Source: Candidatus Poribacteria bacterium (GTDB lineage Bacteria; Poribacteria; WGA-4E; PCPOR2b). Taken from it: DNA of 34,136 nucleotides. The notes beneath the pieces are model-generated. The model saw only the letters and a list, made by a program, of their open reading frames with translations, did no database searches and was not told the DNA's origin. Positions 788-12,732 of this stretch are shown here, piece after piece (the stretch's first letter is position 1; every line of letters begins with the position of its first letter). The stretch covers positions 1 through 34,136 of the forward strand of contig JAPPKS010000008.1 of the NCBI GenBank assembly GCA_028819845.1, in the 5' to 3' direction. A program made the position numbers and the translations under genes.

Positions 788-819
788 GAAACCGAGTTTT
801 GAAGAAAAAACTCGGTTTC
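788..819 (+). repeat. 32-nt perfect hairpin repeat, copy 1 of 9
   Basis: A 13-bp perfect stem GAAACCGAGTTTT / AAAACTCGGTTTC encloses a GAAGAA loop. The loop (GAAGAA or TTCTTC) gives the element an orientation. Other copies: 5807-5838 (+), 7295-7326 (-), 7490-7521 (+), 8936-8967 (-), 9480-9512 (-), 12088-12119 (-), 12493-12524 (+), 12654-12685 (+). Nearly all lie between genes. The stem could terminate transcription, but copies occur away from gene ends and in both orientations, which fits a REP-like repeat better. Confidence 0.9.
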
Positions 820-5683: not shown

Positions 5684-5727
5684 ATCGGGTTACATTTTTT
5701 TAGATTTGACGGTGTAAATCAAGCTGC

Positions 5728-5880
5728 CTGGACTGTGATTTATTTGGTTAATTGATGGGCTGTGATTGGGGGGGACATGGTGATTTGGTGTTGAAGTTAC
5801 GTTAAAAAAACCGAGTTTTGAAGAAAAAACTCGGTTTTAAATGGGGGCCGCGATTCGGAGATTGGTCCTACGGGGTAAGG
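5728..5880 (+). repeat. Composite repeat with hairpin copy 2
   Basis: A 50-bp repeat (5728-5775), the segment GACATGGTGATTTGGTG, the 32-nt hairpin (5807-5838) and the 'cgattcggagattggtcctac' module follow one another. The whole block is repeated with few differences at 7402-7553. No gene is present in it. Confidence 0.8.
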
Positions 5881-5917: not shown

Positions 5918-6079
5918 TTACTTGCCGCGCTCGCCTTCCTTCCGACTGATGAGCCTGCCAGTTTTTGCATCGCGGCTGCCTCGCTTGCCGCCAACAACCT
6001 TTTCAACAGCCCGTTGAGCTTGTCTTTTTGTGAGTTTGCCGCGTTTGGGCGGGTCTTTAACGGTTCTTTCGCGTCCCAC
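5918..6079 (-). pseudogene. Truncated paralogue of the small RDAxTGR protein
   Basis: On the minus strand a GTG start at 6079, seven bases after AAGGTGA, opens a 53-codon frame. It includes VKDPPKRGKL, QRAVEKVVGG and RDAKTGRLISRKEGER, which align with the intact 83-aa protein at 6233-6484. A block of about 15 residues is missing in the middle. A TAA stop (5918-5920) falls exactly where the paralogue has the GAT codon of KDTAVVET, and beyond it the frame still reads TAVVESI. Homology also continues upstream through the ribosome-binding site. The most economical reading is a decayed tandem copy, though a functional 53-aa product cannot be excluded. Confidence 0.75.
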
Positions 6080-6095
6080 TATTATCACCTTATTG

Positions 6096-6125
6096 AATTA
6101 TGTTTTAAACATCGGTCAGTTGGGC
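6096..6125 (-). pseudogene. Remnant of the 3' end of a TIR-like gene
   Basis: The plus-strand sequence from ATGTTTTAAACATCGG through AGTTGGG matches 6504-6528 at 22 of 25 positions. In the intact unit that segment encodes the last residues (TQPNDD) and stop of the TIR-like protein. It therefore seems to be the end of a second copy of that gene, otherwise deleted, in the correct position ahead of the truncated small gene. Confidence 0.55.
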
Positions 6126-6232
6126 TCAATGGGGGTAAAAAATATCCGTTTGCCGTAGGATGGATTTCGGGGAAGACTAACGCTGTCGCTATGGACTCCG
6201 ATGACCCCGATCCACCCAACCTACAAGGGCTG

Positions 6233-6484
6233 TTATCCTCGTTTATTCGGCCTCGTGATGGTCTCAACCACTGCCGTATCCTTACGGCGTTCGGCTTCCT
6301 GACAACTGATAAACCTGCCCGTTGCTGCGTCGCGACCAACCTTAATGGTCGTTACACCATGGTTCGCCGAAGACTTGCCGCCGCCGTTTTTGCCGTAAAC
6401 GACCTCTCGTACGGCTCGTTTGATTTCGCTTCTTTTGAGCTTACCTTTTTTGGGTGGATACTTGACGATTCTTGGTCTTGCCAC
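6233..6484 (-). CDS. Small basic protein with RDAxTGRFIS motif
   Basis: Recommended start is GTG at 6484, because a consensus AAGGAGGTGA lies at the right distance; an in-frame ATG six codons upstream would place the Shine-Dalgarno inside the gene. The product is 83 residues, highly basic, with VKYPPKKGKLKR and KRAVREVVYGK in the first half and GRDAATGRFISCQEAERR near residues 50-67, then TAVVETITRP. Short proteins with an RDAxTGxF core followed by TTVxE are widespread, but I know of no firm function. It begins 24 bp after the TIR-like gene stop and is almost surely co-transcribed with it. A partner, inhibitor or nucleic-acid-binding role is speculation based on charge and context. Confidence 0.8.
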   Translation of the reverse strand: MARPRIVKYPPKKGKLKRSEIKRAVREVVYGKNGGGKSSANHGVTTIKVGRDAATGRFISCQEAERRKDTAVVETITRPNKRG

Positions 6485-6508
6485 GTAATCACCTCCTTGC
6501 ACAATGTT

Positions 6509-7138
6509 TTAATCATCGTTCGGTTGGGTTGTTAACCATTCTACAATCATGTAAACAAAATCATTATAAATGAGTGCTTCAGCCTCCAACTGAAACTCTT
6601 GGGCAAGTTGAGGTAAATCCGCTTTAAAACCTTGGTAATGTTCCCAAATCTTCCTTCCACCTGGAATTCTCTTACGTCTTGAAGCAGTGGTAAGCCAATT
6701 CCGTACGATGGTTACGATTTCCTCAGCATCGTTGTTATGTGCATGAATGTCTTGCCCTGCAATATCCGAAATAAATGCTTGGTAACGATAGGGTTCTTTA
6801 TCCAATATGAGACAATATTTCCTTTTTTGTACCAGTTGCCCAAATTTTTTTGCACCAAGAAAAACTCCCAATTCCAAAGGCATATTGAATCGAGGAAAAC
6901 CTGAAGCGTTGTCCAATTCCGTTCGCGATATATCATGAATCCCGTACCGGCAATCTTCGATAATGTTATAAATTTTATCAATCCGAACTTCGCTGGCGTC
7001 TACTTCTTCAAGAGCGCAACGGGCAATGAATCCGCAATCGTGCACAGCAAACACCATTGCATCAAACAGAGGTTTATATAGTGAATCAAAGGGGCAGTTG
7101 AGGAAAACACTATCATTATAGTTTTTGGGTAAGCTCAT
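6509..7138 (-). CDS. TIR/deoxyribosyltransferase-like protein
   Basis: A 209-residue soluble protein of a widespread uncharacterised family. Conserved-looking blocks, in order, are FLNCPFD (12-18), DCGFIARCALEE (34-45), SEVRIDKIYNIIEDCRYGIHDISRTE (49-74 region) and RFNMPLELGVFLGAKKFG (83-100). The order of a D-S/R-rich strand end followed by ELGxxLG resembles nucleoside 2-deoxyribosyltransferase and TIR-like folds. On that comparison E89 would be the catalytic glutamate. This is a fold inference from pattern, not a database match. ATG at 7138 has only a weak GAG upstream. A likely promoter lies at 7191-7220, and the small basic gene follows 24 bp downstream. Nucleotide or NAD processing in stress or phage defence is plausible but unproven. 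Confidence 0.8.
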   Translation of the reverse strand: MSLPKNYNDSVFLNCPFDSLYKPLFDAMVFAVHDCGFIARCALEEVDASEVRIDKIYNIIEDCRYGIHDISRTELDNASGFPRFNMPLELGVFLGAKKFGQLVQKRKYCLILDKEPYRYQAFISDIAGQDIHAHNNDAEEIVTIVRNWLTTASRRKRIPGGRKIWEHYQGFKADLPQLAQEFQLEAEALIYNDFVYMIVEWLTTQPNDD

Positions 7139-7294: not shown

Positions 7295-7326
7295 GAAACC
7301 GAGTTTTTTCTTCAAAACTCGGTTTC
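7295..7326 (-). repeat. 32-nt hairpin repeat, copy 3
   Basis: Perfect 13-bp stem with TTCTTC loop in the minus orientation. Confidence 0.9.
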
Positions 7327-7401: not shown

Positions 7402-7553
7402 CAAGAGTTGTCTGAACTGTGGGTTATTTGGTTAATTGATGGGCTATGATTGGGGGAACATGGTGATTTGGTGTTGAAGTTACGTTAAAAAAACCGAGTT
7501 TTGAAGAAAAAACTCGGTTTTAAATGACTGTCGCGGTTCGGAGATTGGTCCTA
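7402..7553 (+). repeat. Composite repeat with hairpin copy 4
   Basis: Near-duplicate of 5728-5880: the 50-bp repeat, spacer, hairpin at 7490-7521 and the 'cggttcggagattggtcctac' module. Its last bases provide the TAG stop of the methyltransferase gene on the other strand. Confidence 0.85.
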
Positions 7554-8228
7554 CAAGAGCTTACGGGCGACGACGACGGCGATGGGGCCGCGGCGCCAAA
7601 CGCACTCGGCGTCGAATCCGGCGGTGCGGATGGCGTCGAGTTCGGCCTCAAGCGGGAAATAGGTGTCCTCCTCCGCCCATTGCGCGAAATATTCGCGCGC
7701 ACGCGGCTCCTCGATGCCTGAAGCGGCCATGTGATTAATCCAGCTTCGCCACGCCGCGTCGCGTGCCGGGGGTGCGGCTGGCATCGTGGCGTCGGCGTTG
7801 ACGAAGACGCCGCCGGCTCGGAGCGCACCGTAAATCCGCCGGTACAGGCCGCGCTTTTCGCCGATTGACGGAATATGGTGCAGCGCCAACGACGCCACGA
7901 CCGCATCGCAGGGCGGCAACGGCGCATGGAACGACGACTCGGTGAAACGGGTGCGTTCGTCGAACCGTGCGAGCCGCGACCGGGCTTGCGCCAGCATGCC
8001 GCGGTCGATGTCGATGAGTTCCACCGTTCCGGAGGCGTCCGCCGAAAGGATCGCCTCGGACAGGGCACCGGTGCCCCCGCCGAGGTCGAGCGTCAAGTCC
8101 GGTTTTGTGCGGACAATTTCGCGCGCGGCAACGGCGAGCATGGTCTCGTAGCCCGGAATGAAGCGGCGAATCTTTTCGTCGTAAGTGCGGATTTCAATGC
8201 CGAGGTGGCGGTGTACGGAGTGGTTCAT
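7551..8228 (-). CDS. Class I SAM-dependent methyltransferase
   Basis: A 225-residue Rossmann-fold methyltransferase when started at ATG 8228; an upstream in-frame ATG at 8297 would add 23 residues without family character and cross the promoter of the divergent gene. Motif I is LDLGGGTG (47-54), the acidic residue ending strand 2 is in LIDIDRG (71-77), and motif IV reads CDAVVASLALHHIP (107-120). This order is typical of the Methyltransf_25/11 type, and the length is normal for a small-molecule methyltransferase. The substrate cannot be told. The last codons lie against the composite repeat, whose sequence contributes the TAG stop, so the C-terminus may have been altered by repeat insertion. 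It is divergent from the coiled-coil gene at 8347. Confidence 0.9.
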   Translation of the reverse strand: MNHSVHRHLGIEIRTYDEKIRRFIPGYETMLAVAAREIVRTKPDLTLDLGGGTGALSEAILSADASGTVELIDIDRGMLAQARSRLARFDERTRFTESSFHAPLPPCDAVVASLALHHIPSIGEKRGLYRRIYGALRAGGVFVNADATMPAAPPARDAAWRSWINHMAASGIEEPRAREYFAQWAEEDTYFPLEAELDAIRTAGFDAECVWRRGPIAVVVARKLL

Positions 8229-8346: not shown

Positions 8347-8838
8347 ATGGAAGTTTTTGCCAGCTACATTCCCGTCGTTCTTATCGTGTTAGCCATTATT
8401 GCCGGTTATTGGCGGACGACCATGCAATATGGAGATTTGGGGATTAAGTATGGAAATATAATGGCGAATATGGCGACTAAAGAAGACATTCGGAATCTGA
8501 ATAATATAGTGGCGAATATGGCGACTAAAGAAGACATTCGGAATCTGAATAATATAGTGGCGAATATGGCGACTAAAGAAGAACTTCGGGACATAAAAGA
8601 AGACATTCGGGAGATAAAAGAGGAATTCAGGTACATGAGAGATGAAATCAAGGACATGAGAAATGACATCAGGGCGCTTGACGACCGAATGAATCGTTTT
8701 GAAATGCACGTGACTCAACAGTTCGCCGAGATTAAGGGAGAAATCAGCGATTTGAAACGGGATGTCAATACGCTTCAACAATCGTATGTGAATCACCTGA
8801 TTACAGAGCATAACATTAAACCCGCGCAGCCGGGTTAA
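8347..8838 (+). CDS. Membrane-anchored coiled-coil protein with duplicated 16-aa unit
   Basis: A 163-residue protein with an N-terminal hydrophobic segment (about 5-21) and then a long, charged coiled coil up to residue 150. Residues 37-84 are three copies of a 16-residue unit built around NIVANMATKEDIRNL. The first two copies are encoded by a 48-bp direct repeat (8455-8502, 8503-8550) that differs by about one base, and the third copy diverges. GAGGAG six bases before ATG 8347 and the promoter at 8263-8292 support the start. A rho-independent terminator follows at 8876-8902, so it is a one-gene transcript. It shares its plan with genes at 9132-9371 and 32878-33909. Function is unknown; DUF1640-like or bactofilin-type comparisons would be guesses. 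Confidence 0.8.
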   Translation: MEVFASYIPVVLIVLAIIAGYWRTTMQYGDLGIKYGNIMANMATKEDIRNLNNIVANMATKEDIRNLNNIVANMATKEELRDIKEDIREIKEEFRYMRDEIKDMRNDIRALDDRMNRFEMHVTQQFAEIKGEISDLKRDVNTLQQSYVNHLITEHNIKPAQPG

Positions 8839-8935: not shown

Positions 8936-8967
8936 GAAACCGAGTTTTTTCTTCAAAACTCGGTTTC
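8936..8967 (-). repeat. 32-nt hairpin repeat, copy 5
   Basis: Perfect stem, TTCTTC loop; followed at 8979-9035 by the 'gcctgctactttatcgcggctggaag' module seen in the 1-875 region. Confidence 0.9.
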
Positions 8968-11899: not shown

Positions 11900-12156
11900 T
11901 GACTGAGATAACTGAATCCAATAACCCGAAAAAGGCATCAAAAACGAGCATTCTCAACTTATTTTTTCAAATGCTCACAAATGCTCAACCCCGCAACCCC
12001 GCTCCCTGTCTAGCTTTGTGCCCATTTTCGCTTATTTTCGCATATTCCAAATGCTCACAGAATGCTCAAATCAAAAATCTCAATTTTGAAACCGAGTTTT
12101 TTCTTCAAAACTCGGTTTCTTTAACGCAAGTTTCCCCCTTTTTTTATGGACTGTAA
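11896..12156 (+). pseudogene. Stump of a third terminase-operon gene
   Basis: ATG 11896 overlaps the terminase stop codon (ATGA) and has AAGGAG seven bases upstream, which is strong evidence that a real gene once started here. After about 15 plausible residues (MMTEITESNNPKKAS) the frame becomes low-quality. It passes through short direct repeats around AAATGCTCA (11969-12070) and reads straight through a hairpin repeat copy (12088-12119) before stopping at 12156. The likeliest history is that the next phage gene, perhaps portal, was cut off by rearrangement at the repeat. Confidence 0.6.
12088..12119 (-). repeat. 32-nt hairpin repeat, copy 7, right border of terminase module
   Basis: Perfect stem with TTCTTC loop, in the same orientation as the copy at 9480-9512 and with the same flanking TTTAACGCAA. 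Confidence 0.9.
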
Positions 12157-12490: not shown

Positions 12491-12732
12491 AAGAAACCGA
12501 GTTTTGAAGAAAAAACTCGGTTTCTAGCGGCTAAAAACTCGGTTTCAAGCAGCCAAAAAGAGAATTTTTGAAACCGGGTTTTGGGGGGAGGCGTATATTT
12601 GCGTACAGTGTCAGGTTTAGGATGGAAGTGTCGATTTTTGGTGGGTTATCGAAGAAACCGAGTTTTGAAGAAAAAACTCGGTTTCAAGCGGCCAAAAACT
12701 TGGTTTCTAGCAGTCAAAAATCGGTTTTTGGT
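12491..12732 (+). repeat. Doubled hairpin block (hairpin copies 8 and 9)
   Basis: Two hairpins (12493-12524, 12654-12685) are each followed by a tail in which a half-stem (AAAAACTCGGTTTC or close) and AGCAG-CAAAAA recur. The block of about 68 bp at 12491-12558 is thus repeated at 12652-12720. It lies directly upstream of the promoters of the large surface gene. Confidence 0.8.

What the first reader, a model, noticed from the sequence alone, without database searches (positions are those of the whole stretch)
5918..7138. TIR-like protein plus RDAxTGR small protein form a unit that was duplicated in tandem and then partly lost
The intact pair (6509-7138 then 6233-6484, 24-bp gap, shared promoter) is followed by a second, decayed unit. 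That unit has a 53-codon small gene with a 15-residue internal gap and a TAA where the paralogue has GAT. Upstream of it are the homologous ribosome-binding site and a 25-nt match (22 of 25) to the 3' end of the TIR-like gene. Duplication of both parts together argues that they act as one module. A nucleotide-processing enzyme with a small basic partner resembles effector/partner pairs in defence or toxin-antitoxin systems, but that function is inference.
Basis: partly seen in the sequence, partly recalled or inferred. Interest (0 to 1): 0.75.

Follow-up and report, generated by a model that had tools for sequence, protein, structure and literature searches.

The report
TIR enzyme with swappable small partner
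This is a two-gene module, found here in at least five bacterial groups, in which an unannotated immune-type TIR enzyme sits beside a small helper protein whose end piece is exchanged between genomes, so it looks like an unrecognised family of bacterial self-defence switches, although its function has not been tested.

Summary
In detail: an intact TIR-like gene (6509-7138) and a small gene (6233-6484) are followed by a relic of a second unit (22/25 nt match, 0 of 1000 shuffles). The relic is not a recent copy: it is closer to units in sister genomes than to its neighbour.

The pairing is a real family. All 40 distinct intact Poribacterial TIR-like genes are followed by a gene starting with the same ~30-residue tag. 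Behind the tag sits one of several ends: RDAxTGRF (as here), DUF2188, GIY-YIG-like, a DncV-like cyclase, a ThsB-type TIR, a 600-residue unknown, or almost nothing. In other phyla and viral contigs a small partner (DUF2188, or a tag-like helix) lies directly upstream.

The larger protein matches no family library but folds like SPARTA and TIR-STING TIR domains. Its invariant R83-x-N85-x3-E89 has the spacing of the SfSTING NADase site R78/N80/E84.

Some copies lie in phage structural operons, beside a type VI retron, among Thoeris-type TIRs, or between hsdS and hsdR. Best reading: an NAD-cleaving TIR effector controlled through a tag-docked partner with interchangeable ends. Pairing, tag and swapping are shown by sequence; catalysis, control and defence are inferred.

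The parts
6509..7138 (-). TIR-like gene (209 aa), predicted NAD-cleaving TIR-fold enzyme with a C-terminal helical region (residues 161-204)
6872..6892 (-). R83-F-N85-M-P-L-E89, predicted NAD site and catalytic glutamate
   Evidence: invariant in 23 diverse members; aligned with the NVxxELG of CAP12/PCTIR TIRs; same spacing as SfSTING R78/N80/E84
6485..6508 (-). 24-nt gap with ribosome-binding site AAGGAGGT
6233..6484 (-). small basic partner gene (83 aa): constant tag plus RDAxTGRF end
6395..6484 (-). constant ~30-residue tag (ARPRIVKYPPKKGKLKRSEIKRAVREVV), the candidate docking helix
6248..6352 (-). exchangeable RDAxTGRF end, modelled as a strand-helix-strand mini-domain
   Evidence: pLDDT about 77-90 in the read-through model; stands alone in other loci
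6100..6124 (-). relic of the 3' end of a second TIR-like gene (22/25 nt)
5918..6076 (-). decayed second partner gene: 15-residue in-frame deletion, premature TAA
7191..7220 (-). possible promoter of the pair (TTGATA-18-CATAAT)
   Evidence: weak
7406..7554 (.). direct repeat copy flanking the segment
5722..5871 (.). direct repeat copy flanking the segment

Best explanation
The pair is an effector-regulator module of biological conflict, most likely anti-phage. The TIR-like protein is an NAD(P)+-cleaving effector of the SPARTA/TIR-STING type, using R83, N85 and E89. The small protein docks on it through the constant tag helix, probably on the C-terminal helical region, and keeps it inactive until its exchangeable end (here RDAxTGRF; elsewhere DUF2188, GIY-YIG-like, a CD-NTase or a TIR) meets an infection signal. 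The TIR enzyme then assembles and depletes NAD+, arresting the cell. Shown by sequence or model: pairing, shared tag, exchange of ends, fold, conserved site, defence-type neighbours of several copies. Inferred: binding, inhibition or activation, NAD cleavage, phage defence.
For: Pairing: 40/40 distinct intact Poribacterial genes have the tag gene downstream; outside, a small partner lies directly upstream in nearly all intact loci read. In 19 genomes chosen for having this pair there are only 24 DUF2188 genes, 19 of them beside the TIR-like gene. Tag: a profile from non-Poribacterial helices finds all 85 Poribacterial tag ORFs and 5 other Poribacterial ORFs among 10,664; tag-to-helix hhalign 95.5%, E 1.4e-8; a Poribacteria-only tag profile exceeds shuffles at p<0.05 in 17 of 31 other partners. 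Exchange; partner class follows the TIR tree, 12 changes against 24.1 shuffled, 0 of 200 as low. Enzyme. Context: phage structural operons, type VI retron and ThsB/TIR-TM neighbours, between hsdS and hsdR.
Against: The read-through co-fold did not place the tag helix with confidence (pLDDT about 55, pTM 0.68). No Pfam, NCBIfam or PADLOC TIR model matches the window protein. Low-complexity basic partners can imitate the tag: 14 of 31 were not above shuffles, and the helix segments for one search were picked by eye. Defence neighbours are a few examples, not a tested enrichment; the window itself has none obvious. No functional data.
Confidence: 0.55

Rival explanations
1. A classical toxin-antitoxin pair: the TIR-like enzyme is a toxin, the small basic protein a labile antitoxin; the exchanged ends only tune stability or binding and sense nothing.
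For: Two small coupled genes; partner first with overlap or gaps of a few bases outside Poribacteria; frequent decay of copies and isolated relics; a Panacea antitoxin gene near one copy.
Against: Partner ends include whole enzymes (DncV-like cyclase with GS..DxD motif, ThsB TIR), which is unlike an antitoxin. Gene order is reversed in Poribacteria.
Confidence: 0.25
2. Roles reversed: the partner end is the effector (nuclease, cyclase, TIR) and the TIR-like protein makes the nucleotide signal or is the regulator that releases it through the tag, as ThsB signals to ThsA.
For: Some ends are known effector or signal domains (TIR, GIY-YIG-like). TIRs such as ThsB are signal makers. A shared core with variable partners resembles a regulator with variable effectors.
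Against: The commonest ends (DUF2188, RDAxTGRF, nearly bare tag) have no recognisable catalytic motif, so these versions would lack an effector.
Confidence: 0.13
3. A housekeeping nucleotide-metabolism enzyme (deoxyribosyltransferase-like) with an unrelated small neighbour.
For: Deoxyribosyltransferases, BcmB and DNPH1 are among the fold matches.
Against: Patchy distribution (7/385 Alphaproteobacteria, 4/369 Gammaproteobacteria, 28/345 Bacteroidota), plasmid and viral copies, many decayed copies; the best fold matches are immune TIR domains.
Confidence: 0.07

Closest known systems
SPARTA (short Argonaute with TIR-APAZ)
   Same: Best structural match of the TIR part (8oz6, E 7.8e-5); a two-gene unit whose second protein controls a TIR NADase.
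   Different: No Argonaute, no APAZ domain; the partner is a small tagged protein with exchangeable ends.
TIR-STING (SfSTING / CAP12) of CBASS
   Same: TIR fold match 7un8, E 6.9e-4; same R-x-N-x3-E spacing as R78/N80/E84 (PMC9402430); profile alignment to CAP12/PCTIR TIRs; some partners carry a DncV-like cyclase.
   Different: No STING or other cyclic-nucleotide-binding domain; most partners are not cyclases; sequence too distant for the Pfam model.
Effector-associated domains (EAD principle; Kaur 2020, PMC8195603)
   Same: A constant non-catalytic helical piece recruits varied effector or signalling domains to one core.
   Different: Here the constant piece is about 30 residues and is found only on the partner, never on the TIR-like core (0 of 161), so it would bind the core, not another copy of itself.
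PADLOC candidate PDC-S16 (DUF2188)
   Same: The DUF2188 partners match it, so that database already lists this domain as a phage-defence candidate.
   Different: Its name marks it, as I understand it, as a single-gene candidate; here it is one of several partners of a TIR-like gene that the database does not model.

Membership tests
TIR-domain NADase (SPARTA / TIR-STING type) | TIR fold | tested here: met
   10 PDB matches at E below 0.001, all SPARTA or SfSTING TIR proteins; model pLDDT 81, pTM 0.84
TIR-domain NADase (SPARTA / TIR-STING type) | catalytic Glu with NAD-contacting residues | tested here: met
   invariant R83/N85/E89, aligned by hhalign, spacing as in SfSTING
TIR-domain NADase (SPARTA / TIR-STING type) | match to a curated TIR family model | tested here: not met
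   no match at E up to 1 for the window protein; 10 of 23 relatives match CAP12-PCTIR_TIR only weakly (best 0.011)
TIR-domain NADase (SPARTA / TIR-STING type) | NAD+ cleavage | not testable with these tools
   needs an enzyme assay
CBASS | CD-NTase gene | tested here: not met
   absent from the window pair; present as a tag fusion in a few other Poribacterial loci
CBASS | effector with a cyclic-nucleotide-binding domain | tested here: not met
   the 209-aa protein is a TIR plus about 50 helical residues; no STING or SAVED match
Thoeris | ThsA plus ThsB genes | tested here: not met
   no ThsA or ThsB match in the window pair; ThsB only as a tag fusion (L101) or neighbour (L230) elsewhere
Type II toxin-antitoxin | small adjacent partner gene, translationally coupled | tested here: met
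Type II toxin-antitoxin | toxicity neutralised by partner binding | not testable with these tools
   needs expression assays; the co-fold did not place the tag
EAD systems | same adaptor on core and effector (homotypic) | tested here: not met
   0 of 161 TIR-like ORFs carry the tag

The most novel reading that the evidence does not exclude
A general immune architecture in which one compact TIR NADase is plugged, through a ~30-residue docking tag, into many interchangeable sensors. It would give a role to the orphan domains DUF2188 and RDAxTGRF and create two-gene cyclase-TIR systems in which the cyclase is physically tethered to its effector rather than acting only through a diffusible signal.
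Probability: 0.3. Interest if true: 0.88.

Novelty: new variant of a known kind. Interest (0 to 1): 0.7.

Why it matters
If right, it adds an unnamed TIR family spread over at least five bacterial groups and gives two widespread orphan small domains (DUF2188, RDAxTGRF) a testable job as regulators of a TIR enzyme. The tag with exchangeable ends makes a simple prediction: moving one end to another tag should change what triggers the enzyme. The cyclase-tag fusions ask whether a CD-NTase can act while bound to its effector.

Tried and rejected
Sequence searches of the window proteins against Pfam, NCBIfam, PADLOC, PHROGs and PDB gave nothing, so relatives and folds had to carry the argument. Recent tandem duplication was rejected by the identities. 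RDAxTGRF as a shortened DUF2188: rejected, hhalign probability 0.3%. Phage collection: no match, although viral contigs do hold the module. Co-folding through the in-frame TAA (read as Q) gave no confident docking of the tag. Standalone partner rows misaligned to the TIR N-terminus and were dropped. In the adjacency control, 33 of 605 other ORFs had a partner-like neighbour, inflated because loci are centred on the module. Literature: DUF2188 is mentioned in 7 papers, none on defence judging by titles and abstracts; searches for the pairing or for Poribacterial TIR systems found no description.

Full report
WHAT IS IN THE WINDOW. On the minus strand lie a 209-codon ORF (7138-6509), a 24-nt gap with AAGGAGGT, and an 83-codon ORF (6484-6233). 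Downstream, a second small ORF (6076-5918) aligns with the first, lacks 15 residues, and stops at a TAA that replaces GAT; the frame beyond still reads TAVVESI. Upstream of it, 25 nt match the 3' end of the large ORF at 22/25; in 1000 dinucleotide shuffles the best was 19. So a second unit once existed here. It was not made by recent copying: the relic protein is 37/63 identical to its neighbour but 44/63 and 42/63 to the partners in G020 and G018 of the same family. The segment is flanked by two ~150-nt direct repeats (5722-5871, 7406-7554; 91%), the only full-length copies of an interspersed repeat with at least 50 hits in the genome.

THE LARGE PROTEIN. It matches nothing in Pfam, NCBIfam, PADLOC or PHROGs. 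Relatives occur in 45 of 85 Poribacterial-phylum genomes, 12 of 64 genomes of the phylum of a Latescibacterota MAG, 28 of 345 Bacteroidota, 7 of 385 Alphaproteobacteria and 4 of 369 Gammaproteobacteria, on alphaproteobacterial plasmids and in viral contigs. AlphaFold with 17 relatives gave pLDDT 81, pTM 0.84. Foldseek on that model found SPARTA TIR-APAZ, TIR-STING, deoxyribosyltransferases, BcmB and DNPH1. On a second model with more diverse rows, all 10 matches below E 0.001 are SPARTA or SfSTING TIR proteins. Across 23 diverse members F12 N14 C15 P16 R52 H68 D69 R83 N85 M86 P87 E89 L90 G91 S124 D125 G128 D130 H134 are invariant. hhalign to Poribacterial CAP12/PCTIR TIRs gives 82% (E 1.1e-5), aligning RFNMPLELG with RARQNVIFELG; the DUF2188-type subfamily gives 87%. 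In SfSTING the site is R78, N80 and catalytic E84 (PMC9402430); the window protein has R83, N85, E89 at the same spacing. NAD(P)+ cleavage is therefore a strong prediction, untested.

THE PARTNER. Every one of 40 distinct intact Poribacterial TIR-like genes is followed by an ORF beginning with a constant tag, roughly MARxRxxKxPPKRGKLTxxQIxRAVxKV. Behind the tag: RDAxTGRF (window type), DUF2188 (PF09954, 2.8e-15), a GIY-YIG-like end (weak matches only), a DncV-like CD-NTase (PADLOC cyclase 3.6e-130; GS..DxD motif present in four of the five copies checked), a ThsB-type TIR with winged-helix-like end (1.1e-22), a 600-residue unknown, or a short tail. RDAxTGRF also exists as a 45-residue orphan elsewhere in Poribacteria.

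OUTSIDE PORIBACTERIA the order is reversed: a small gene ends within a few bases of the TIR-like start, or overlaps it. Many of these are DUF2188 proteins. In 19 genomes chosen for having such a pair there are 24 DUF2188 genes, 19 of them the pair itself; because the domain is rare, chance adjacency is negligible, but the genomes were selected for the pair. Most other partners carry a helix like the tag. A profile from 19 such helices, none Poribacterial, finds all 85 Poribacterial tag ORFs and 5 other Poribacterial ORFs among 10,664. I chose those helices by eye, so I also ran the reverse test without selection: a Poribacteria-only tag profile beats 200 shuffles at p<0.05 in 17 of 31 partners. 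RDAxTGRF-like ends also recur in Rhizobium, Sphingomonas and Sediminibacterium partners.

THE TWO EVOLVE TOGETHER. On the Poribacterial TIR tree the partner class needs 12 changes (least possible 6) against 24.1 shuffled, 0 of 200 as low; DUF2188 and GIY-YIG types each form one supported group, while cyclase and short types are mixed. The pair is thus inherited as a unit, with occasional exchange of the end.

CONTEXT. Viral-contig copies sit between phage head and tail genes or just before the tape-measure gene (L149, L155), beside a type VI retron and an integrase (L152), or among two ThsB genes and TIR-TM (L230). The ThsB-fused pair lies between hsdS and hsdR (L101). In the cyclase loci no further effector gene was seen next to the pair by reading the ORFs. 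These are examples, not a measured enrichment.

MECHANISM. I infer a TIR NADase held by, or assembled through, a tag-docked partner whose exchangeable end reads the trigger. The C-terminal helices of the TIR-like protein (161-204) are a plausible dock. A read-through model (window 7138-6236 with TAA read as Q) modelled RDAxTGRF as strand-helix-strand at pLDDT 77-90 but left the tag helix at about 55, so docking is neither shown nor excluded. A simple toxin-antitoxin pair and a reversed-role model remain open.

NOVELTY. TIR enzymes controlled by a partner are a known kind. This family, its tag and the exchangeable ends were not found in the family libraries or papers searched. The closest idea in print is the EAD principle (PMC8195603), but the tag is absent from all 161 TIR-like ORFs, so it is not homotypic. 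I file it as a new variant of a known kind.

Noticed in passing
L152:3299-4554: A type VI retron (HTH_VI 1.9e-32, RT_VI 1.4e-75) lies just upstream of the pair in a prophage-like contig; whether the pair belongs to it was not tested.
   Followed up: partly
L186, L188, L189: TIR-like proteins in Bacteroidota with a long C-terminal extension that resembles a formylglycine-generating (SUMF1-type) domain by eye, followed by another conserved gene.
   Followed up: no
L095, L117, L125, L134: A ~600-residue tag-fused partner with no Pfam or PADLOC match for the one copy scanned (L117).
   Followed up: partly
L205, L206, L208: Bacteroidota TIR-like genes whose upstream neighbour looks like an ordinary TIR protein instead of a small partner.
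   Followed up: no
L073, L076, L077: Orphan 45-residue RDAxTGRF proteins downstream of an aconitase-like gene in several Poribacteria.
   Followed up: no
L238-L267: CAP12/PCTIR TIR genes are abundant and often in short arrays in Poribacteria (44 of 83 genomes).
   Followed up: no
window 789-815, 5808-5834, 7299-7325, 7491-7517, 8940-8966, 12092-12118, 12494-12520, 12655-12681: Interspersed near-palindrome AAACCGAGTTTTGAAGAAAAAACTCGG, 8 exact copies in the window.
   Followed up: partly
window 8347-8838: ORF with repeated NIVANMATKEDIRNLN units.
   Followed up: no
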